A stretch of 20,048 nucleotides of DNA, from contig DFIB01000157.1 in NCBI GenBank assembly GCA_002371375.1, forward strand, positions 1-20,048, in the 5' to 3' direction. The notes under the pieces are model-generated. The model saw nothing but the letters and a program-made list of their open reading frames with translations, was not told the DNA's origin and did not search any database. This document shows, piece after piece, positions 2,669 through 13,344 of this stretch (position 1 is its first letter; each line of letters starts with the position of its first letter). This stretch comes from Mageeibacillus sp. UBA3708 (GTDB taxonomy: Bacteria; Bacillota; Clostridia; Saccharofermentanales; Saccharofermentanaceae). Made by a program: the position numbers and the translations under genes.

Positions 2669-5600
2669 ATGCACAGATCATTAATCCGGAAAATCTTAAG
2701 CAGCATTTTGACCATGTCTATGGCAAGCAGCTGTCTTGCGGGTCTGCCGGTCTCGGTTCTCGCCGGTGAGACAGATGAGATCAATGAGACGGAACAGATA
2801 CCGGACGCTTCAGAGACGGCAGAGACGGAAGAGCCGGAAGAACCGGAAGAGCCGACAGATCCGGCAGAGACGACGGAACAGACGGAGGAATCAGAACTGG
2901 ACGCAGCTGCTGATACGCAGAACGAGCCTGCAGATACAGGCAAGTATCCCGATGCCGAACCTCTTACGAAGAAAGTTGAGGCGGATAAGGTTTACCGTAT
3001 CATGCCTGAGAATCTCAATGATGGTGAAGCCTCAGCATCATTCACACCTGCCAAGACCGGATACTACTCTTTCCGCGGCGATACGGTCAATGATCACTGG
3101 TTCGGGATAGATACAGACGGAAGCTATACATACCTTAAGCTGTTCAAAGAATTCGATGATACCGGTGATTTCACCGAGTCATGGTATGTTTATCTTGAAG
3201 GCGGAACAAAGTACAGCTTCTATTATTCTTTCTACGACCTCGATGAGAAGCCGTTCGGCGAGACCTATATCAGTGTGCATGCGGTACAGGATTACGTTTA
3301 TCTGTGTCCTCAGTTCGAGACAATACTTGCCGAGAAAGATAAACAATTCACTGTGCCTTTCGAGCTGGACAGCACAGTGGAATGCACCGCAGCGAAATAT
3401 ACATGGAAGGTCTATGATAAAGAATATACGACAAATGTACCGGTACTGACCAAAAACAGCAACGATGTATTTGATTTTGATTCCGATCCTGACAACAGGT
3501 ACGAGCTCTGTTTGGATGCTGAACTGACGATCAACGGCAAGAAAGTATACCTCAACAACGAGTTTTCGGTCAGAACTTACGTTAATCCCTACCCTGACGC
3601 AGATAAGATCCCTTCCGTCATTAAGGCAGATACTGTCTACCACTTTGACGAAGACAGCTTCACTGATATGACCGAAGATGACGAACCTGCGATCAAAGTA
3701 TCGTTCACACCTGATAAGACTGCCTGGTATTGCATGGAATGGTGTGAACAGGGATTATACACCACGGCATATGGAAGTGATTCTGAGGAGATACCGTTCA
3801 TAGAATCATGTTATCATTGGAATTCTGATCTTGACCATGACCTCAGACTCCTCAGACTTGAGAAGGGCCGGACATATACTCTGATCATGTCTCGCAGCGG
3901 ATACTATGACGAAGATGAGGGAGACTTCACCGAAGCATTCTGCAGAATGACAACAGTTAGCAGTTATTGCTTTGCCGAGCCTGAGAATGAACCGGTCAAT
4001 GCGATCAAAGACAAGACTTTCACACTCACATTGGATATGGATTATTCTGCCGATATTACTCCTGTCTCATATTCATGGTACCTGTACGGGGAAGAAGAGC
4101 CGTTTACCGTGACTACGACTCCGTCCATAACACTCAATTCAAACGATTACTTTGAATTTGACGGCAAAGAGAAGCAAATAGTATTAGAATGTGAAACGGA
4201 ATTAGACACCGGTGATGAAATAGATACTAGATTCTATGTGGATTTCACGGTTGTACCCTACATTTCGGAATTTGATTCCGAGGTCAAGGCAGAGTATGTC
4301 GGTGATACCGAGTATCACTGCGATCCTATGGGAGTCTATTATGAGAACGTAATATACAAAGCCGGGGAGAACATTTCTTTCGAAGTGCTTGGAACGGGAC
4401 CTGAAGGATGTACTGTCACATATCAGTGGTATGATGTCAAACCCGGCGGTGCAACTCTCACAAAGATTGACGGTGCAACAGCTCCTGAGTTCAAGTTCAA
4501 TTCCAACGACTATGATCCCGACAGGTGGGAAGTATCAAAAGACTGGGGCGACGGCTCTGACGATCCCGGGTTCATCGAAATAAGCCACAGGATCAGCTGC
4601 GTAGTTACGGTCACCAAAGGCAAGGAGACTGTAACACGCGAAATGCCTTTCGTTGTGGAATACGGGCCCGACTTTGATGAGGATTATCCGGATAGTATCA
4701 TCGTTGCCAGTTATGGTGATTCCGTCAACATAAGCGGCATTGATCTCGATTATGTGGACGGGCTTGATATAGAGTATCAATGGGAAGATTCGTACTCTGA
4801 CAATCCTCTGGGAACAGGTAAGAACATAACGATCGATACTTCAGAACTTGTGACCAATGATTATTCCGAGGGCGTGAAGAGCTGCATCTTACTCAGGGTA
4901 ATGATCAAGGATAAAGCTTCCGGACTTTACATGACTTCAAGCGGCAACTGCTACTGGATTGATGTCTACTATTCCGATACCATCACACCAGACGGCATCG
5001 AGATAAACGGGACTAATTTCCCCGACACGGAATTCAGGAAATACATCGCAACCATTGACTGTGACGGCAGCGGATATCTCAGTGACGATGAGATATCTCC
5101 GACATGGACCATAGAAGTGCCTAACCTCGGAATAAAAGACCTCAAGGGCATAGAGTACTTCGACGAGATGACATACCTCGACTGCAGCGGCAACAGTATA
5201 TCTTCTCTTGATCTGTCATCAAACGGAAGTCTGTCGGAGCTTAACTGCAGCAATAATAAACTGACATCTCTTAATCTGACCGGCTGCAGTGAACTTGTTG
5301 CCGCAGATATAAGTCACAACAATATTAGCAGTATTGATCTGAGCACTTGTGATTCCCTGCTTGACATCTATACTAACGGTCCGAGATACCGTTTTGATAA
5401 TAATGTCAGCGTGTATGGTGACTATATCATTTCCGAAGGCGGAGAGCTTGACGCAACCGGCTGTCCTTCTCTCCTGATCGACGACAAGACAACTGTAAAG
5501 AACGCAACTCCGGCAGTTCCCGAGAATCAGGAGGTCACATATTCCTGGAAGATGATCAACAAGAAGTGGTACTATGCCGGAAGTGACGGAAGCTACACTA

Positions 5601-6217
5601 CGGGATTGACTGAGATCGACGGCAGTTCATACTTCTTCGGTAATGACGGTGCCATGAAGACCGGGTGGATCAACGATGACGGCAATTACTTATATGCCAA
5701 CAAGTCAGGTGCTCTTCTCACCGGCTGGCAGAAGATCAGCAAAGTCTGGTATTACCTTGATCCCGAATCATTCGTTATGGTAACCGGCCTCTGTGAGATC
5801 GACGGCACGCTCTACTGGTTCAAGTCATCCGGAGCCCTTGCATCCGGATGGTACAAGAATGAAGACGGCAGTTATTATTACTTCACGACAAACGGCGCAG
5901 TAACAGGCTGGAAGCTGATCAGCAAAGTGTGGTACTACTTTGATAAAGACAATATGCTGATGGTGACAGGCGTACGGGAGATCGACGGCGCAATTTACCT
6001 GTTCTCTTCGGGCGGAGCCATGCAGAAGTCAGGCTGGAAGCAGTCAGGCAGTGACTGGTACTATCTGACCAAGAGCGGCAGTGCTTATGTAAGCAAGTGG
6101 CTCAAGAGCGGCAAGAAGTGGTACTACTTCAAGGAAGACGGCAGAATGGCTGCTAACGAATCTCTTGAGATCGACGGCAAAGTCTACGAGTTCGACGGTT
6201 CCGGCGCCATGAAGTAA
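2669..6217 (+). CDS. Secreted multidomain cell-wall-binding repeat protein
   Basis: This 1182-residue protein is predicted to be exported and held non-covalently on the cell wall. A signal peptide covers residues 1-32 (basic start, hydrophobic core, cleavage after VLA). An acidic Glu/Thr/Pro-rich linker follows (about 34-96). Residues 100-770 hold repeated beta-rich units: two copies start with an ADKVY/ADTVY segment (about 105 and 320) with FTP.KT motifs, and at least four Ig-like modules carry a YxW strand (245, 468, 585, 703) and mostly an NSND motif. Residues 771-935 hold an NFPDTEFRKY segment, an EF-hand-like loop (D797/D799/S801/E808) and short leucine-rich repeats. Residues 956-1182 are WYY-type choline/glucan-binding repeats (CW_binding_1 type) that should bind wall polymers. 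There is no LPXTG and no catalytic domain. I infer an adhesin or surface-structural role; the ligand is unknown. The start has a strong ribosome binding site. Confidence 0.9.
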   Translation: MHRSLIRKILSSILTMSMASSCLAGLPVSVLAGETDEINETEQIPDASETAETEEPEEPEEPTDPAETTEQTEESELDAAADTQNEPADTGKYPDAEPLTKKVEADKVYRIMPENLNDGEASASFTPAKTGYYSFRGDTVNDHWFGIDTDGSYTYLKLFKEFDDTGDFTESWYVYLEGGTKYSFYYSFYDLDEKPFGETYISVHAVQDYVYLCPQFETILAEKDKQFTVPFELDSTVECTAAKYTWKVYDKEYTTNVPVLTKNSNDVFDFDSDPDNRYELCLDAELTINGKKVYLNNEFSVRTYVNPYPDADKIPSVIKADTVYHFDEDSFTDMTEDDEPAIKVSFTPDKTAWYCMEWCEQGLYTTAYGSDSEEIPFIESCYHWNSDLDHDLRLLRLEKGRTYTLIMSRSGYYDEDEGDFTEAFCRMTTVSSYCFAEPENEPVNAIKDKTFTLTLDMDYSADITPVSYSWYLYGEEEPFTVTTTPSITLNSNDYFEFDGKEKQIVLECETELDTGDEIDTRFYVDFTVVPYISEFDSEVKAEYVGDTEYHCDPMGVYYENVIYKAGENISFEVLGTGPEGCTVTYQWYDVKPGGATLTKIDGATAPEFKFNSNDYDPDRWEVSKDWGDGSDDPGFIEISHRISCVVTVTKGKETVTREMPFVVEYGPDFDEDYPDSIIVASYGDSVNISGIDLDYVDGLDIEYQWEDSYSDNPLGTGKNITIDTSELVTNDYSEGVKSCILLRVMIKDKASGLYMTSSGNCYWIDVYYSDTITPDGIEINGTNFPDTEFRKYIATIDCDGSGYLSDDEISPTWTIEVPNLGIKDLKGIEYFDEMTYLDCSGNSISSLDLSSNGSLSELNCSNNKLTSLNLTGCSELVAADISHNNISSIDLSTCDSLLDIYTNGPRYRFDNNVSVYGDYIISEGGELDATGCPSLLIDDKTTVKNATPAVPENQEVTYSWKMINKKWYYAGSDGSYTTGLTEIDGSSYFFGNDGAMKTGWINDDGNYLYANKSGALLTGWQKISKVWYYLDPESFVMVTGLCEIDGTLYWFKSSGALASGWYKNEDGSYYYFTTNGAVTGWKLISKVWYYFDKDNMLMVTGVREIDGAIYLFSSGGAMQKSGWKQSGSDWYYLTKSGSAYVSKWLKSGKKWYYFKEDGRMAANESLEIDGKVYEFDGSGAMK
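2768..2956 (+). repeat. Low-complexity acidic linker coding region
   Basis: Residues 34-96 of the surface protein are almost only Glu, Thr, Pro, Asp, Ala and Gln. The DNA has near-repeats of gagacggcagagacgg and gccggaagaaccggaa type around 2813-2885. It probably acts as a flexible spacer between the signal peptide and the folded modules. Such tracts are prone to length change by slippage. Confidence 0.6.
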
Positions 6218-6474: not shown

Positions 6475-8874
6475 TTATACAACACTCATGGCGTATCTCA
6501 CCGTTGCCATCGCATCTTTCCCGTAGAAATCCGCACCGATCATATCCGCATATTCCTGTGTCAGCACCGCGCCTCCGACGCACACCTTGCACCAAGGAGC
6601 ATCCTTGCGCAGGAGCTTTATCGTCTCTTCCATCGCGGGCACCGTCGTCGTCATGAGTGCAGACAATCCGCACAGGGGTGCATGGTTCGCAACAACTGCT
6701 TCAACCACGGTCTCCGGAGGAACATCCCTGCCAAGATCGATAACATCGAAGCCGTAATTCTCGAGAATGAGTTTCACGATGTTCTTGCCGATGTCGTGAA
6801 TGTCACCTTTGACTGTTGCTATGACAAACTTTCCACGTGAAGGACCTGATGATCCTGCCTCCGCCATCTTCTTTTTGATCTGCTCGAAAGCAAACTGCGA
6901 CGCCTCCGCACTCATAAGAAGCTGCGGCAGGTACATTGTCTTCTCCTCAAAGCCCTTACCGACTATATCAAGCGCCGGGATGATCTGCTCAGACACTATG
7001 TCGAGCGGCTCCGTGGACTCAAGAAGACCTGCTGTGAGCTTAGCGGCCTGCTCCTTCATTCCCTTAACAATAGCACGCTGAAGATCAGTCAGACCGTCAT
7101 CATTAACAGTGGCGGAAGCCGGCGTTCCTGCAGTAAGTGTCGATACTGCGTATTTATCTATATTGGCTATATAATCACCGCAATTAGCATCAATCCCGGA
7201 CAGTACCTTGAAAGAATACCACACCTTCATCATCTCGTTTGAATTGGGATTCATTATTGCCGCGGACAGTCCCCGTGTCATCGCCATAAGGAAGAAGGAA
7301 GATGTAATGATCTCCCTCTGCGGCAATCCGAAAGACACGTTTGACACACCGAGAGAAGTGTTACATCCCAATTTGTGTCTGATATGATCAAGTGCATCAA
7401 GTGTGGCAAGCGCTGCCCTGTCGTCTGCACTGACTGTCATGGCGAGCGTATCGAATATAAGATCCTTCTTAGGTATGCCGTATTCCTCCGCGCGCGCGAT
7501 AATCTTCTCGGCAATCTCTATCCTCTCGTCGGCATTGTCAGGAATACCGCGCTCATCAAGCGTAAGACAGACGAGGAGTCCCCCGTACTTTTTAACCAAA
7601 GGGAATACCGCCTCCATAACTTCTTCCTTGCCGTTTACCGAATTGATCATCGGCTTGCCGTTATAAGTGCGGAGCGCGCGTTCCATGGCAACGGTATCAG
7701 TAGTATCTATCTGAAGAGGCAGATCGATTATCGCCTGAAGCTCATATACGACTTCAGTCAGCAGAGAAGGCTCATCTATCTCGGGAATTCCGACGTTGAC
7801 ATCCAGTACCTGTGCTCCCCTGTCAACCTGCGCCAGACCTACACTCAGGATATGTTCTATGTCATGTTCACGAAGAGCTTCCTTGAACTTCTTCTTACCC
7901 GTCGGATTGATCCTCTCGCCTATCAGTACCGGGGACACGCCGAATTCAACTGTTTTAGAATAAGAACTGATCACGGATCTGTTCTTATCAGTCAACGGAA
8001 CCGGGGTGATATCCTTGCTCTTATTTACTGTCTCTCTGATGTAATCAGGCGTCGTTCCACAGCAGCCGCCTGCGATCCTCACACCCTCCCCAATAAACTC
8101 TGCCATAAGATCAGAGAATTCATCGGGATAGACATCATAGACTGTCCTGCCGTTCTCGGTTCTCGGAAGTCCCGCGTTCGGCTTCAGAAGAACCGGAATG
8201 GATGAATAACGCAGATAGTCCTCCACCACTCCCCTTAACTGGGCAGGTCCAAGCGAACAATTCGCGCCTATTGCATCAACTCCCAGACCTTCCAGCATCG
8301 CTGTCATCACGGCGGGTGTAGCGCCTGTCATTAGCTTACCGTCTTCACTGTATGCATTGGATACAAATACGGGAAGGTCGGAATTCTCCTTTGCCGCCAG
8401 CACGGCCGCCTTTGTATCATAACTGTCGTTCATCGTCTCGATGAATATAAGATCAACGCCGCATTTTACACCTATTCTCACCGTATCGGCATATACCGAT
8501 ACCGCATCCTCGAAATCATAATCGCCATACGGCTTAAGAAGCTTGCCTATTGGTCCTATATCAAGTGCCACGAACTTCTGCTGCGTTCCCTTGCTCAGTG
8601 TCTGCGCTCTCTTAACATTCTCAACTGCCGCCCTTACCAGGCTCTCAAGTTCTTCAAGGTCGAACTTCAGCGAATTCGCGCCGAAAGTATTAGTCGACAC
8701 GACATTCGAACCTGCATCATAATATGCTCTGTGGATATCTGTAACAACATCCGGATTGGATACATTCCATCTCTCCGGAAGCTCTCCCGGCTTAAGGCCC
8801 CGGTCCTGAAGGAGTGTTCCCATACCTCCATCAAGATAAAGCAGATTGTCATTCATATATTCAAGAACTGTCAT
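6475..8874 (-). CDS. metH: Cobalamin-dependent methionine synthase lacking the reactivation domain
   Basis: This 799-residue cytoplasmic enzyme transfers the methyl group of 5-methyltetrahydrofolate through cobalamin to homocysteine, making methionine. The homocysteine domain (about 1-290) has LDGGMGT (14-20) and the zinc cysteines C206 (GANCSLGP) and C271/C272 (GGCCGTTP). The pterin-binding domain (about 310-575) starts at LIGERINPTG. A helical cap (about 590-670) leads to the B12 domain with DIHDIGKNI (691-699), where H693 is the cobalt ligand, and SALMTTT near 738-744. The C-terminal adenosylmethionine-binding reactivation domain of E. coli MetH (about 1227 residues) is absent. It is supplied in trans by the next gene upstream. 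A GGAGG lies 10 nt before the ATG. It is the last gene of the operon with metF and the ECF/DUF4430 pair. Methionine synthesis here should depend on B12. Confidence 0.96.
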   Translation of the reverse strand: MTVLEYMNDNLLYLDGGMGTLLQDRGLKPGELPERWNVSNPDVVTDIHRAYYDAGSNVVSTNTFGANSLKFDLEELESLVRAAVENVKRAQTLSKGTQQKFVALDIGPIGKLLKPYGDYDFEDAVSVYADTVRIGVKCGVDLIFIETMNDSYDTKAAVLAAKENSDLPVFVSNAYSEDGKLMTGATPAVMTAMLEGLGVDAIGANCSLGPAQLRGVVEDYLRYSSIPVLLKPNAGLPRTENGRTVYDVYPDEFSDLMAEFIGEGVRIAGGCCGTTPDYIRETVNKSKDITPVPLTDKNRSVISSYSKTVEFGVSPVLIGERINPTGKKKFKEALREHDIEHILSVGLAQVDRGAQVLDVNVGIPEIDEPSLLTEVVYELQAIIDLPLQIDTTDTVAMERALRTYNGKPMINSVNGKEEVMEAVFPLVKKYGGLLVCLTLDERGIPDNADERIEIAEKIIARAEEYGIPKKDLIFDTLAMTVSADDRAALATLDALDHIRHKLGCNTSLGVSNVSFGLPQREIITSSFFLMAMTRGLSAAIMNPNSNEMMKVWYSFKVLSGIDANCGDYIANIDKYAVSTLTAGTPASATVNDDGLTDLQRAIVKGMKEQAAKLTAGLLESTEPLDIVSEQIIPALDIVGKGFEEKTMYLPQLLMSAEASQFAFEQIKKKMAEAGSSGPSRGKFVIATVKGDIHDIGKNIVKLILENYGFDVIDLGRDVPPETVVEAVVANHAPLCGLSALMTTTVPAMEETIKLLRKDAPWCKVCVGGAVLTQEYADMIGADFYGKDAMATVRYAMSVV

Positions 8875-8928: not shown

Positions 8929-9573
8929 CTAAGGCTGCTCCCGCCTCATTGAACATCCCGTAAGTCCGCACATGCTGCAATCGTGTCCGTCAGCACTCAC
9001 AGAACCTTCACGGATCCCGAATATCGCCGTTACGGACTTTGACGGGGTCATGAGCAGACTCTCATTAAGAGATATCCCGATCTTCGATTCGCACTGAAGC
9101 AGCTCGAAAACATCCTTCTGCGACTCCAGGGGCATGTCGCCGTAGCCCGGGGAATACCTTGCCGTACGCCCATTAAAGCCTGAACAGAACAGGTCACAGA
9201 GAGCCTCAACGCGTTCCGCACCGAGAGCCTGCATTATAAGTGCTTTGGACGGGGATGAACGCTTGAACCGTCCGATGATCCTGTCAAATTCGTAGCCAAC
9301 CGTTGCAGCAAAGACTATAACCTCGCTGCTGCCGGCTATTACTTTCGCCAGGCCTTTGGAATCAGATCTGAAAGGAAGATGCGGGGCTCTCACAAAACAC
9401 ACCTTGCCTCGTGCTATGCCGCCGTATTCCGACAGCATCTCATCCATCAGATCGGCGAGGGGGCCTCCGGAAGGTACCTGCCTCGAACCCGTGTACCTCC
9501 AGACCTCCTTGAGATCTATCGGAGGCAGATCGGATGCACTGTATTGACGGACTTCAATGTTGTAATTGCTCAT
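8929..9573 (-). CDS. Free-standing methionine synthase reactivation-domain protein
   Basis: This 214-residue protein corresponds to the adenosylmethionine-dependent activation domain of methionine synthase (Met_synt_B12 family). That domain remethylates cob(II)alamin after accidental oxidation of the cofactor. The adenosylmethionine-binding signature RYSPGYGD is at residues 139-146, followed by the conserved LNESLLMTPSKSVTAIFGI segment (169-187). The C-terminus ends in a cysteine cluster (C199, C202, C207). This is typical of the stand-alone Firmicutes form and absent from E. coli MetH; it may hold a metal or Fe-S centre, which is an inference. The ATG overlaps the metF stop (ATGA), and metH, which lacks this domain, follows after 54 bp. 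Together the two proteins should equal one full-length MetH. The reductant for reactivation is not visible here. Confidence 0.9.
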   Translation of the reverse strand: MSNYNIEVRQYSASDLPPIDLKEVWRYTGSRQVPSGGPLADLMDEMLSEYGGIARGKVCFVRAPHLPFRSDSKGLAKVIAGSSEVIVFAATVGYEFDRIIGRFKRSSPSKALIMQALGAERVEALCDLFCSGFNGRTARYSPGYGDMPLESQKDVFELLQCESKIGISLNESLLMTPSKSVTAIFGIREGSVSADGHDCSMCGLTGCSMRREQP

Positions 9574-10457
9574 GCGAATTCGCGGCCGAGGATTGATGAC
9601 AGGCTCTCCTTGATGCCCCTTGCAACTTCCGGCTTATTCATCGAATACACGTGTACGTTCGTGATCCCGTTGGCATACAGATCAATGATCTGATCTGTGG
9701 CATAGATTATCCCTGCCTGCGTCATCGCGGAATCGTCCGGTCCGAACCTGTCAACGATGGAACGGAACCTGACGGGCATGTAGGCTCCTGACAGTTTGAC
9801 GGCACGCTCAACCTGAACCGCCTTTGTGATCGGCATTATGCCCGGCAGCACCGGCACCGTGACGCCCATATCGCGGAGCTTGTAAAGGAAATTGAAGAAC
9901 AGGTTGTTGTCGAATATCATCTGCGTCGTAAGGAAATCAACTCCTGCATCGACTTTGGCCTTGAGGTGCATAAGGTCATCTCTCTGATTTTTGCTCTCCG
10001 GATGGATCTCGGGATAGCATGCGGCACCTATGCAGCACTCGGGATATATGCTCTTTATCTCCTGTATGAGTTCTATGGCGTAATGATAATCCCAGCTGCT
10101 CCTGTCGGAATCGGCCATGTCAGACGGAATATCGCCCCGCAGTGCCATGATGTTCTTTATCCCTGCATCCTTCAGTTCCGTTATCCTTCTTCTGACAGTC
10201 TCCCTGTCAGATGACACGCATGTAAGATGTGCAAGGATCGGGACATTATACTTATGCTCCAGCTCGCTGCTCAGGCGGAGCGTATATTCACTCGTTCCCC
10301 CGCCTGCGCCATATGTTACGCTCATGAATGAAGGCTTAAGTGCGGCTATCTCACCGGCCGCCTCCAGCACGCTCTCAAGAGAAGTCTCTTTCTTCGGAGG
10401 AAAAACCTCATAAGACAGCGACATCTCACCCCTGTTCAGTATATCTGTTATTCTCAT
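9570..10457 (-). CDS. metF: Methylenetetrahydrofolate reductase
   Basis: This 295-residue cytoplasmic flavoenzyme reduces 5,10-methylenetetrahydrofolate to 5-methyltetrahydrofolate, the methyl donor for MetH. Length matches the bacterial family. SYEVFPPK (15-22) contains the catalytic Glu (E17, equivalent to E. coli E28). SVTYGAGG (46-53) follows, ALRGD with D109 corresponds to the flavin/folate aspartate, and TTQMIFD (177-183) and PGIMPI (205-210) are conserved. The start overlaps the upstream ECF gene by 32 bp. It has GGGAGGG just upstream, and an internal ATG at M12 is less likely because it would remove the usual N-terminal helix. It overlaps the reactivation gene by 4 bp. Operon placement links folate methyl supply directly to the B12-dependent methyltransferase. 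Confidence 0.96.
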   Translation of the reverse strand: MRITDILNRGEMSLSYEVFPPKKETSLESVLEAAGEIAALKPSFMSVTYGAGGGTSEYTLRLSSELEHKYNVPILAHLTCVSSDRETVRRRITELKDAGIKNIMALRGDIPSDMADSDRSSWDYHYAIELIQEIKSIYPECCIGAACYPEIHPESKNQRDDLMHLKAKVDAGVDFLTTQMIFDNNLFFNFLYKLRDMGVTVPVLPGIMPITKAVQVERAVKLSGAYMPVRFRSIVDRFGPDDSAMTQAGIIYATDQIIDLYANGITNVHVYSMNKPEVARGIKESLSSILGREFA

Positions 10458-10977
10458 CTTGCCCTCCCTTGTACGGCGATCCGATTATCATTGTCATAGC
10501 CTTGCGAAGCGGCTTAAACAGTACCAGTGCAATGACTGTGTTACTTATGCAGTGCATAATATCAAACGGTATACCGGCAATCCACCATGCAACTGCAACT
10601 TTAAGTCCTCCGAAGAAGAGGTATGGTATTGCACATATCATACCAAAAAACAGTCCGTAAAAACCACCCAGGAATACAAAGCACCAGTCAGGCAGCTTGC
10701 GCTTCCCCATGATGTATGCGGTAATGATCAAAAGAGGCCATATATACAGGTACATCAGCACCCATATATGCGGCCCCCAGATAAGAGTCTCAACTCCCGT
10801 AAAGATAAGAGCAACAATACAGCTCTTAAGCCCGTATGTTACGGCGAATACCATAAAGAGCAGCGTGACCATCTCGACGTTCGGTATGCTCTGAAGTGCC
10901 CATTTGACAGCCTCTGTCAGGGCAACCATAACGCCAATGGTCGCGATGTCCTTAATGGTAAATATCGCCTTGCTCAC
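10426..10977 (-). CDS. ECF transporter S component, substrate probably cobalamin
   Basis: This 183-residue membrane protein is about five to six hydrophobic helices (about 8-30, 35-66, 70-90, 98-123, 127-155) with few charges. That is the size and layout of the substrate-binding S subunit of energy-coupling-factor vitamin importers. Such S units capture a vitamin and dock on a shared EcfA/A'/T module, which is not in this window. The start is GTG, with AGAGGG just upstream; it overlaps the stop of the DUF4430 gene (GTGA), giving tight coupling. The S family alone does not tell the substrate. Context (a transcobalamin-like DUF4430 protein upstream, B12-dependent methionine synthase and its reactivator downstream) makes cobalamin the best guess. 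Folate is the main alternative because metF follows immediately. The transporter call is good; the substrate is inferred. Confidence 0.82.
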   Translation of the reverse strand: MSKAIFTIKDIATIGVMVALTEAVKWALQSIPNVEMVTLLFMVFAVTYGLKSCIVALIFTGVETLIWGPHIWVLMYLYIWPLLIITAYIMGKRKLPDWCFVFLGGFYGLFFGMICAIPYLFFGGLKVAVAWWIAGIPFDIMHCISNTVIALVLFKPLRKAMTMIIGSPYKGGQDENNRYTEQG

Positions 10978-11474
10978 TGTCCCTCTGATGTCTCGTAAAC
11001 GAACTTGAAGGAATCACCGTCGTTAACAGGCTGCTCAGAGATGCCATAACTGCCATACTCGCCGTTAACATAGATAGCCCAGTAAGAAGCATCCGTATTA
11101 AAGTCTGCCTTAACTCCGTTGATCGTCGTAACGAACAGACCGTACTGGCCTTCTTCGCCTACATAAGTGAAGTCGCCGTTCTTTGTCATGTCATCCATGA
11201 GATCCTTAAGGTATGCGGCATCTGTTCTGCCTGCGTAATCCTTGGATGATCCGTCCTTGCCCACAACCGTAAAGGTATATGCCTTGGCGCCCTGCTGTGC
11301 CTGTGATACATCACTTCCGTTTGCATCAGATGAGACAGCCGCATCTTTTGCCGTCTCATCCGGCTTGGGTTTATTAAGGAAATAAACTAATGCAAATACG
11401 CCTGCTGCAACGATCAAAGCAGCTGCTGTAATGATTATCGGCAGTTTACTGCCGCCCCTCTTGTTTGTCTTCAT
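10974..11474 (-). CDS. Membrane-anchored DUF4430 (transcobalamin C-terminal-like) protein
   Basis: This 166-residue protein has a basic N-terminus, one transmembrane helix (about 12-34) and no lipobox Cys. A low-complexity linker rich in Ala, Asp, Ser and Gln (about 36-64) leads to an extracellular DUF4430 domain (about 65-166). The domain shows the family's end pattern: YWAIYVNGEYGSYGISEQ, then DGDSFKFVYE. DUF4430 (Pfam PF14478) is the bacterial relative of the C-terminal domain of vertebrate transcobalamin and intrinsic factor. An in-frame TTG two codons upstream (11480) exists, but the ATG at 11474 has better spacing (8 nt) from GAGG. The stop overlaps the ECF S start, so the pair should be made together. 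I infer a surface cobalamin-capturing partner of the ECF importer. No binding residue can be confirmed from sequence. Confidence 0.85.
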   Translation of the reverse strand: MKTNKRGGSKLPIIITAAALIVAAGVFALVYFLNKPKPDETAKDAAVSSDANGSDVSQAQQGAKAYTFTVVGKDGSSKDYAGRTDAAYLKDLMDDMTKNGDFTYVGEEGQYGLFVTTINGVKADFNTDASYWAIYVNGEYGSYGISEQPVNDGDSFKFVYETSEGQ

Positions 11475-11506
11475 GTTCAAAACCTCTTTTCTTTTAGATC
11501 ACGCAA

Positions 11507-11535
11507 AATATACCACATTGGTAGGCTTTTGTTAA
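11507..11535 (-). promoter_or_regulatory. Promoter of the DUF4430-ECF-metF-metH operon
   Basis: On the minus strand TTAACA (11530-11535), a 17-bp spacer and TATATT (11507-11512) form a good sigma-A-type promoter with a TGG extended -10. It sits in the 76-bp gap after sua5. The predicted leader is only about 25 nt, which leaves no room for a cobalamin or SAM riboswitch. Confidence 0.6.
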
Positions 11536-11550
11536 TAACCTAACGGCAGA

Positions 11551-13344
11551 TCAGCATCTCTCGATCCCGAGATCTTTCAAAACATAGGGAAAGATCAACT
11601 CCAGCCATGCTTTGAGTGCCGATGCCGTATGAAGGTATGTTGCCTTATTCTCCCCTCTCGGATCCGGAATGGATATTGACGCCACGCGCCCGTCCTCACT
11701 CTTGAAAACAAGACCTTTGTCTGCACAGTAGGATGATAACGAGAACACCTTTCCCTCAAGTTCGGGAAAAGACTTAAGTATCTCATATGCCTGTTCGTCC
11801 CTCATCGTAAAGATAAGGTCGTTGGCATCGTAGACCGAAGGCTCTGTCCTCCTCGTACGGTAAGATGATATGTTTACACCGCACGACTCCATTACAGCAT
11901 CAGTCATATCCTGATCGAGCTGCTCATCCTGATATGCCCTTATACCGGCGGATTCCGCATAAAGCTCGCAGCCCACCTTCCTGTCATCTCTCAGCCTGAA
12001 CGGTGCTTTTCTCCTTATCAGATCAGTAAATATCCCTTCGCACGCGGGCGACAGCCTCTTGTTGTCGTCACATACAAAAAGCACTGACGCTGTATATGTT
12101 CCCTCAAATGACTCAAGATCAGCATATCGTGAAGCCTCCTCATATGCCGCCCCTTCAGGCACATCGCCTGTTCTCCCGCTCGCTTTGCCCAGCCTGTTCA
12201 TGTAAGCCTTGGACAGACCGCTGCCGCCGAATCCCTGTGCCAGTATTATACCGACATCCTGTAAATCAAGATGCCTCATCCCGTCGAAAAGGAAGTGACT
12301 TGCACGAGCCACATCCAGAGATCTTCCATATGCATATGTCTCTGTATGTGCGGATATTATCTTATCGCCCAGCTTATCTATCAGGGCACAGACCTCATCG
12401 CCTGCATATATACCGATCCTGGCGGCTGGAGAATCCTTCAAAATCTCTCTGATCCTGAATACAAACGGTGCCGCGATATCGACAAGATCCTGCTTTGCAT
12501 CATCATCGAGCTTCTTGAAATCAAGGTGTGACTTGTCATCACTTGCATCATATGAATCATCCTGAAGTTCATCATTTATGATCACGGCTTTTGCCGGGAG
12601 ATTCATAATCTCCACCGTTGCTTTGGGTGCATAGTGCCTGTATTTCATCCCCGGGGCTTTGGGTATCTCTCCGTCCTTAAGGACATCGGCAAGCTTTACA
12701 TCTCCGCATACTTCCTTGACAGCATTCGGTGTTATCGCCCCCGGTCTGAGTATTACAGGAATATCTCCTGTCGCATCAACTACCGTAGACTCGAGTCCGA
12801 ACAGACATTCACCGCCGTCAATTATCCCGTAGATGTAGCCGTCCATGTCATTCATCACGTGTTCTGCCCTTGTAGGTGAAGGGCTGCCTGACAGGTTAGC
12901 TGAAGGAGCTGCCACAGGAACGCCGCAGGCTTTGAGAAAATCATGTGCTGCCTGATTGGAGGGCATCCTCACACCCACAGTATCGAGGCCTGCAGTTACC
13001 TCATCAGGGATAACATCACTCTTCTTCATGATCACAGTTATCGGACCGGGCATAAATGCATCTATCAACTTATGTGCAACAGGTGTTATATCTTTCACGA
13101 TATCGCCGATCTGCTCTTTGTCAGCGATATGGCAGATCAGAGGATTATCTGACGGTCTGCCCTTGGCTTCGAATATCCTTACCACAGCATCCTTGTTGGT
13201 TGCATCTGCTCCGAGTCCGTATACGGTCTCCGTCGGGAAGCCTATGACTTCCCCATCCCTGAGGCGCTTTGCCAGGTCCTCTACCCCTTTATCATCTCCG
13301 GCACTTATCAGATAGGTTTTTGAATATCTTTTTGTACGTTCCAT
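11551..13344 (-). CDS. Threonylcarbamoyl-AMP synthase fused to a degenerate LMW phosphatase-like domain
   Basis: Residues 1-375 are a complete Sua5/TsaC-type L-threonylcarbamoyladenylate synthase. It uses threonine, bicarbonate and ATP to make the precursor of the t6A modification at tRNA position 37. Seen are FPTETVYGLGADA (36-48), the KGRPSDNPL ATP-binding motif (61-69), SANLSG (148-153) and the PGMKYRHYAPKA linker (231-242) that leads into the Sua5-specific domain. Residues 418-597 resemble low-molecular-weight tyrosine/arginine phosphatases: VLFVCDDNKRLSP (421-433), YDANDLIFTMRDE (505-517) and an IPDPRG acid loop with D561. The catalytic CX5R is broken: after C425 the Arg position is Leu431. 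The reading frame is intact, so this is not a frameshift. Sua5-family proteins are about 200-350 residues, so the extension is real. The gene ends the prfA operon, 24 bp after prfA. Confidence 0.92.
   Translation of the reverse strand: MERTKRYSKTYLISAGDDKGVEDLAKRLRDGEVIGFPTETVYGLGADATNKDAVVRIFEAKGRPSDNPLICHIADKEQIGDIVKDITPVAHKLIDAFMPGPITVIMKKSDVIPDEVTAGLDTVGVRMPSNQAAHDFLKACGVPVAAPSANLSGSPSPTRAEHVMNDMDGYIYGIIDGGECLFGLESTVVDATGDIPVILRPGAITPNAVKEVCGDVKLADVLKDGEIPKAPGMKYRHYAPKATVEIMNLPAKAVIINDELQDDSYDASDDKSHLDFKKLDDDAKQDLVDIAAPFVFRIREILKDSPAARIGIYAGDEVCALIDKLGDKIISAHTETYAYGRSLDVARASHFLFDGMRHLDLQDVGIILAQGFGGSGLSKAYMNRLGKASGRTGDVPEGAAYEEASRYADLESFEGTYTASVLFVCDDNKRLSPACEGIFTDLIRRKAPFRLRDDRKVGCELYAESAGIRAYQDEQLDQDMTDAVMESCGVNISSYRTRRTEPSVYDANDLIFTMRDEQAYEILKSFPELEGKVFSLSSYCADKGLVFKSEDGRVASISIPDPRGENKATYLHTASALKAWLELIFPYVLKDLGIERC

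What the first reader, a model, noticed from the sequence alone, without database searches (positions are those of the whole stretch)
8929..11474. DUF4430 protein plus ECF S component as a B12 capture-and-import pair in a methionine synthase operon
Seen: a membrane-anchored DUF4430 protein and an ECF S component overlap by 4 bp and are co-directional with metF, a B12-enzyme reactivator and metH, behind their own promoter. Known: DUF4430 is related to the C-terminal domain of animal transcobalamin/intrinsic factor, and ECF S units import vitamins including cobalamin. Inferred: the DUF4430 protein is a bacterial surface B12-binding partner that passes cobalamin to the S component, a simple parallel of the animal B12-carrier route, linked to the enzyme that needs the vitamin.
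Basis: partly seen in the sequence, partly recalled or inferred. Interest (0 to 1): 0.72.

Follow-up and report, generated by a model that had tools for sequence, protein, structure and literature searches.

The report
Bacterial vitamin B12 catcher and importer
A bacterium related to rumen species carries, beside its vitamin-B12-dependent methionine synthase, a two-gene B12 import set: a known type of membrane importer and a small surface protein built like one domain of the animal B12 carriers, which probably catches the vitamin for it.

The parts
10974..11474 (-). DUF4430 gene: membrane-anchored transcobalamin-beta-like protein (ATG start; TTG at 11480 also in frame)
   Evidence: PF14478 E 4.6e-12; fold match to transcobalamin/haptocorrin/intrinsic factor beta domains
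11376..11444 (-). N-terminal transmembrane anchor helix of the DUF4430 protein (residues 13-35 of the 168-aa reading)
   Evidence: helix in AF2 model; a hydrophobic N-terminus is seen in 74 of 77 paired DUF4430 proteins
10983..11288 (-). extracellular beta-grasp (DUF4430) domain, residues 65-166
10426..10977 (-). CbrT-like ECF S component (GTG start, GTGA overlap with DUF4430)
   Evidence: PDB hit 6fnp_A, E 1.1e-9 alone and 5.9e-20 as profile, no other PDB sequence at E<=10; 6FNP is ECF-CbrT; S-component fold
9570..10457 (-). metF, 5,10-methylenetetrahydrofolate reductase
   Evidence: PF02219 E 3.5e-79
8929..9573 (-). separate methionine synthase reactivation domain protein
   Evidence: PF02965 E 9.5e-11 over residues 136-185
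6475..8874 (-). metH, B12-dependent methionine synthase without its own activation domain
   Evidence: S-methyl_trans, Pterin_bind, both B12-binding domains
11507..11535 (-). sigma-70-like promoter match in front of the DUF4430 gene (consensus only)
   Evidence: TTAACA-17-TATATT, 10 of 12

Best explanation
The two genes form a cobalamin uptake unit. Shown by sequence: the S component belongs with CbrT, and the genome holds an EcfT with an ATPase frame before it, a module the S component could dock to. Inferred from the CbrT work: the S component binds cobalamin (and probably cobinamide) from outside, topples and releases it inside, powered by the shared module. Inferred from fold and context: the DUF4430 protein, held on the outer face by its N-terminal helix, uses its beta-grasp domain to catch cobalamin in the cell wall and keep it next to the S component, as the beta domain of transcobalamin does with the alpha domain. 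The imported vitamin serves MetH, encoded in the same gene string. In this lineage the unit takes the job that BtuFCD does in most relatives.
Against: No binding data for any bacterial DUF4430 protein were found. ECF-CbrT, as described, imports B12 in E. coli and in liposomes as ECF module plus CbrT alone (PMC5997447, passages), and in two E. faecalis plasmid records (L172, L175) no DUF4430 was found in the 8.4 kb around CbrT (the profile is weak in Lactobacillales), so the partner does not seem essential. The protein lacks the alpha/alpha toroid that gives animal carriers much of their grip. G056 has DUF4430 in a different ECF operon with a PF07155-type S component, so the domain need not always mean B12. 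G029 has metH but neither MetE, BtuC nor the pair, and G066, G070, G083 and G094 have metH and MetE but neither BtuC nor the pair, so B12 import is unexplained there. 45 of the 73 loci have no riboswitch directly before the pair. The nine genomes stand for about three lineages, so the p-values overstate independence; within the genus the riboswitch contrast is not significant (0 of 9 against 19 of 76, 0.20).
Confidence: 0.72

Rival explanations
1. The S component imports cobalamin, but DUF4430 does not itself catch it: it is a lid, stabiliser or docking aid that keeps the S component facing outward, or helps change the upper ligand.
For: ECF-CbrT works without it (PMC5997447, passages); the beta domain alone has lower affinity than whole transcobalamin (PMC5599065: expressing the domains apart lowered affinity); strict pairing in 77 of 80 loci fits a direct contact with S as well as capture.
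Against: The fold is specifically that of the cobalamin-binding beta domain, with the hairpin insert, and the isolated human domain crystallises with cobalamin.
Confidence: 0.2
2. The unit is tuned to incomplete or other corrinoids (cobinamide, pseudo-B12) made by neighbours in the rumen, more than to cobalamin.
For: CbrT also carries cobinamide (PMC5997447, passages); isolated transcobalamin beta binds cobinamide (PMC5599065); cbiC is in 0 of 115 family genomes, so corrinoids probably all come from outside.
Against: The MetH link needs a complete corrinoid, and nucleotide-loop salvage genes were not looked for.
Confidence: 0.06
3. The S component carries folate or a methionine precursor, and the neighbourhood reflects the methionine pathway, not B12.
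For: Neighbours metF and metH use folate; the S component has no Pfam or NCBIfam match.
Against: The profile finds the CbrT chain only and no FolT at E<=10; cobalamin riboswitches stand before the pair in 28 of 73 loci, and no folate or SAM riboswitch was reported in the 53 loci scanned directly; BtuC was not found where the pair occurs.
Confidence: 0.02

Closest known systems
ECF-CbrT of Lactobacillus delbrueckii (6FNP; PMC5997447) with its neighbour cbrS
   Same: S component of the same sequence family; operon with a B12-dependent enzyme; in L. intestinalis the same order (nrdJ, x, S, adenosyltransferase) has DUF4430 as x, so cbrS is probably a DUF4430 protein.
   Different: Here the operon is metF-reactivation-metH, not nrdJ-pduO; the window S component is a distant homologue (single-sequence match E 1.1e-9); cbrS is named once in that paper and no test of it appears in the passages I read.
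[quoted passage not shown]
   Same: Fold, hairpin insert, secreted or anchored domain in Gram-positives; predicted in 2007 to scavenge B12 with CbiO/CbiQ-like transporters.
   Different: The 2007 paper links it to CbiO/CbiQ operons; the passages and section I read name no S component, riboswitch or methionine synthase operon. 3u7z is labelled a putative metal binding protein.
Animal transcobalamin, haptocorrin, intrinsic factor
   Different: No alpha/alpha toroid, membrane-anchored not soluble, and the partner is an S component instead of an endocytic receptor.
BtuFCD
   Same: Same job: external capture protein plus ATP-driven importer; lies near metH in many relatives.
   Different: Unrelated proteins.

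Membership tests
CbrT-type ECF S component | sequence match to CbrT above other S-component families | tested here: met
   profile finds 6fnp_A at 5.9e-20 and no other PDB sequence at E<=10; 6FNP is ECF-CbrT; the chain is labelled only 'Membrane protein', that it is CbrT is my reading
CbrT-type ECF S component | S-component fold | tested here: met
CbrT-type ECF S component | shared EcfA-EcfA'-EcfT module in the genome | tested here: met
   CbiQ/EcfT at G000:C122:4166-4816, E 2.7e-40, preceded by an open frame that reads as two ABC ATPases by eye
CbrT-type ECF S component | genomic link to B12 and absence of BtuFCD | tested here: met
   riboswitch in 28 of 73 loci; BtuC homologue (E<=1e-30) in 0 of 9 family genomes with the pair
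CbrT-type ECF S component | high-affinity cobalamin binding and ATP-driven uptake | not testable with these tools
   needs protein
Transcobalamin-like clade of SLBB domains (DUF4430, PF14478) | PF14478 match over the curated cut-off | tested here: met
   46.7 bits against 23.8
[quoted passage not shown]
   model strands 106-111 and 114-120 follow helix 91-100; match to 5np4 and 2bb6
Transcobalamin-like clade of SLBB domains (DUF4430, PF14478) | binds cobalamin | not testable with these tools
   no bacterial member with measured binding was found in my searches
Two-domain animal B12 carriers | N-terminal alpha/alpha toroid plus C-terminal beta domain in one protein | tested here: not met
   only an anchor helix and the beta domain, 166 aa
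BtuFCD importer | PF01497 binding protein, PF01032 permease, ATPase | tested here: not met
   none in the operon; no BtuC homologue at E<=1e-30 in the 86%-complete genome

The most novel reading that the evidence does not exclude
The S component stands in for the toroid of the animal carriers: cobalamin is first held by the tethered beta domain and then sandwiched between it and the outward-facing S component, so the bacterial pair is a split, membrane-bound form of the transcobalamin grip. It is a widespread Gram-positive B12 import system that replaces BtuFCD, and perhaps close to the source of the animal B12-carrier domain.
Probability: 0.3. Interest if true: 0.8.

Novelty: new variant of a known kind. 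Interest (0 to 1): 0.62.

Why it matters
B12 is contested in gut and rumen communities (general knowledge), and a 2019 gut survey that I read in passages calls the identification of transporters for B12 and its precursors an open problem (PMC6593275). A DUF4430-CbrT unit gives a simple marker for one import route, explains how the window's lineage can depend on MetH without BtuFCD, and gives DUF4430 a testable function. It also puts the animal B12-carrier fold next to a bacterial B12 importer, which makes the 2007 proposal of a bacterial origin of that domain directly testable.

Tried and rejected
Folate or methionine-precursor S component: rejected on the PDB profile and riboswitches. A cobalamin riboswitch before the window's own operon: none. 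A DUF4430-S fusion: of the six longer or odd proteins fetched, P0158 and P0168 only have odd N-terminal extensions and P0052 has one extra C-terminal helix, so no clear fusion. For the S model, 6fnp is not among the 50 rows printed of 119 Foldseek matches nor in the VIA table; that is inconclusive, and the sequence match carries the point. Other B12 genes in the 80 loci: the recurrent recognised neighbours are MetH (14), the reactivation gene (12) and MetF (10), and the five close relatives of the window, L087-L091, are in each count; a generic ABC ATPase cluster recurs in 12 loci, and the other clusters printed, most not named by me, recur in at most 6. The greedy ORF caller missed some S and DUF genes (DUF4430 in only 54 loci); one search scanned all six frames instead. 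L139: coordinates mapped from the genome scan lay 250 bp before S, but the direct scan found no riboswitch, so it is not counted. One genome-scan hit below cut-off (G139:C21) was left out. Three of the 39 directly scanned loci (L093, L148, L149) have under 950 bp before S and could hardly show a riboswitch; they stay in the denominator. Other riboswitches met in the scans were glmS (L152), c-di-GMP-I (L102, opposite strand) and fluoride (L100); none stands on the pair's strand in front of it. The N-terminal lipobox count (6 of 77) is a rough pattern. Four-base overlap is not general: possible in 8 of 77 pairs. L. delbrueckii itself could not be fetched, so cbrS as DUF4430 rests on L. intestinalis and on the note that LGG_02295 of L. 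rhamnosus, a DUF4430 protein, lies next to rtpR (PMC9963975, passage). Papers on DUF4430, PF14478 and RUMGNA_00854 were searched (6, 0 and 0 papers); of the 6, two were opened at the one passage that names DUF4430 and four seen in the listing only; no functional study among what I saw. CbrT, cbrS and transcobalamin with ECF or riboswitch terms: (listings). Rodionov 2009 was not opened and is known only as cited. The models were not docked with cobalamin; the tools do not fold complexes.

Full report
What is there. On the - strand the window holds, in transcription order, a gene for a 166-aa DUF4430 protein (11474-10974), an ECF S component (10977-10426), metF (10457-9570), a separate methionine synthase reactivation gene (9573-8929) and metH (8874-6475). 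DUF4430 and S overlap by GTGA, S and metF by 32 bp. A sigma-70-like match stands in the short gap before DUF4430; it is a consensus match only. No riboswitch was found in the window.

The two belong together. From 487 genome loci with an S relative the best 80 were kept. DUF4430 lies directly upstream on the same strand in 77; two loci are cut by the contig end; one (L130) has none. By record title most of the loci are Lachnospiraceae, with some Erysipelotrichia and other Clostridia.

The two belong to B12. Direct Rfam scans of 39 of the 80 loci found the cobalamin riboswitch (RF00174) in 16, each time just before DUF4430 (74-321 bp from riboswitch to the domain). A genome scan of 50 of the 80 hosts found one in 32 genomes, in 21 of them just before the pair and in the other 11 elsewhere. 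Together 28 of 73 loci have it; the 12 first known from the genome scan were confirmed directly. A Subdoligranulum plasmid has an AdoCbl riboswitch before its pair. No other riboswitch class was found in front of the pair on its strand. Recognised recurrent neighbours are MetH in 14, the reactivation gene in 12 and MetF in 10 of 80 loci, from the window's relatives and from other groups.

Displacement in the window's own family. Of 115 genomes, 9 have the S component and 10 have DUF4430; the pair is adjacent in all 9. Eight of the 9 pairs lie beside metF/metH, in two gene orders: DUF-S-metF-act then metH in six (with two genes before metH in G010), and metF then metH-DUF-S in two; the ninth (G050) lies elsewhere. 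cbiC was found in 0 of 115, so none is expected to make B12 itself. MetH is in 103 of 115, including all 9. A BtuC homologue at E<=1e-30 is in 99 of 115 and in none of the 9; 7 others also lack it. The chance value is 1.6e-9 over all, and 3e-6 among the 62 good genomes, but the nine genomes are only about three lineages. MetE is in 2 of the 9 and 79 of the other 106. Cobalamin riboswitches occur in 47 of 115 and 0 of the 9; of these 11 were looked at, and in all 11 a BtuC homologue lies within about 3.3 kb downstream (coordinates; genes; seven proteins from four of these loci checked by Pfam). In the same genus, 38 of 43 genomes with the divergent BtuC form have it 2.7-10.6 kb from metH, and in 8 of the 17 metH regions fetched, which were picked by hand, BtuF and BtuC genes lie within a few genes of metF. 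So the place beside metH is often filled by one B12 importer or the other.

The older link. L. delbrueckii cbrT lies in nrdJ-cbrS-cbrT-pduO (PMC5997447). Of 38 plasmid records that match the printed CbrT fragment 8 were opened. L. intestinalis has nrdJ, DUF4430, S, adenosyltransferase in that order; L. plantarum nrdJ, adenosyltransferase, DUF4430, S; E. raffinosus and L. reuteri have DUF4430 before S, E. gallinarum on the other side of the B12-dependent reductase, and the Subdoligranulum record has the pair. In two E. faecalis records none was found; in one of these the S gene is annotated as cobalamin ECF transporter and lies by the B12-dependent reductase. So cbrS is probably this DUF4430 protein, and S can probably work without it. 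The 2007 SLBB paper (outline, passages and section 7 part 1 read) already predicted that such domains scavenge B12 with CbiO/CbiQ-like transporters.

Verdict. That the pair imports B12 is nearly certain (about 0.95). That DUF4430 binds cobalamin and passes it on is the best reading (about 0.7) but unmeasured. The system is a variant of ECF-CbrT, not a new category. New in the literature I could search are the near-constant pairing, the riboswitch in front of it, and its exchange with BtuFCD beside metH.

Noticed in passing
L058:5256-9263 (G056): A second kind of DUF4430 operon: CbiQ-like T component, double ATPase, PF07155-type S component and DUF4430 after surface proteins with Big_2 and PQQ-like domains, in a genome that also has BtuFCD-like genes near metH. 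Its ligand may differ.
   Followed up: partly
L051:11074-11610, L052:7050-7577, L073:7149-7685: A ~178-aa membrane protein without Pfam match (checked for L051) follows an EamA-like transporter just before DUF4430-S in two genomes; in G066, where neither BtuC nor the pair was found, it sits directly before metH. It may be another S-like transporter.
   Followed up: no
L070 (G029): metH, but no MetE, BtuC or DUF4430-S pair found in a 94%-complete genome: its B12 source is unexplained.
   Followed up: partly
L053:11232-13367; L054:10913-12949: A ~700-aa protein upstream of the pair (one gene away in L053) in two relatives, no Pfam match for the L053 copy.
   Followed up: no
window 2669-6217, + strand: A 1182-aa protein with leucine-rich and choline-binding-type repeats and a signal-like start, the only long gene on the + strand.
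   Followed up: no
PDB 3u7z: The R. gnavus structure deposited as a putative metal binding protein is, over a fragment, about 32-46% identical to the paired DUF4430 proteins in the rows printed, so its label probably needs revising.
   Followed up: partly
window 11551-13344: Threonylcarbamoyl-AMP synthase fused to a low-molecular-weight phosphatase domain.
   Followed up: no
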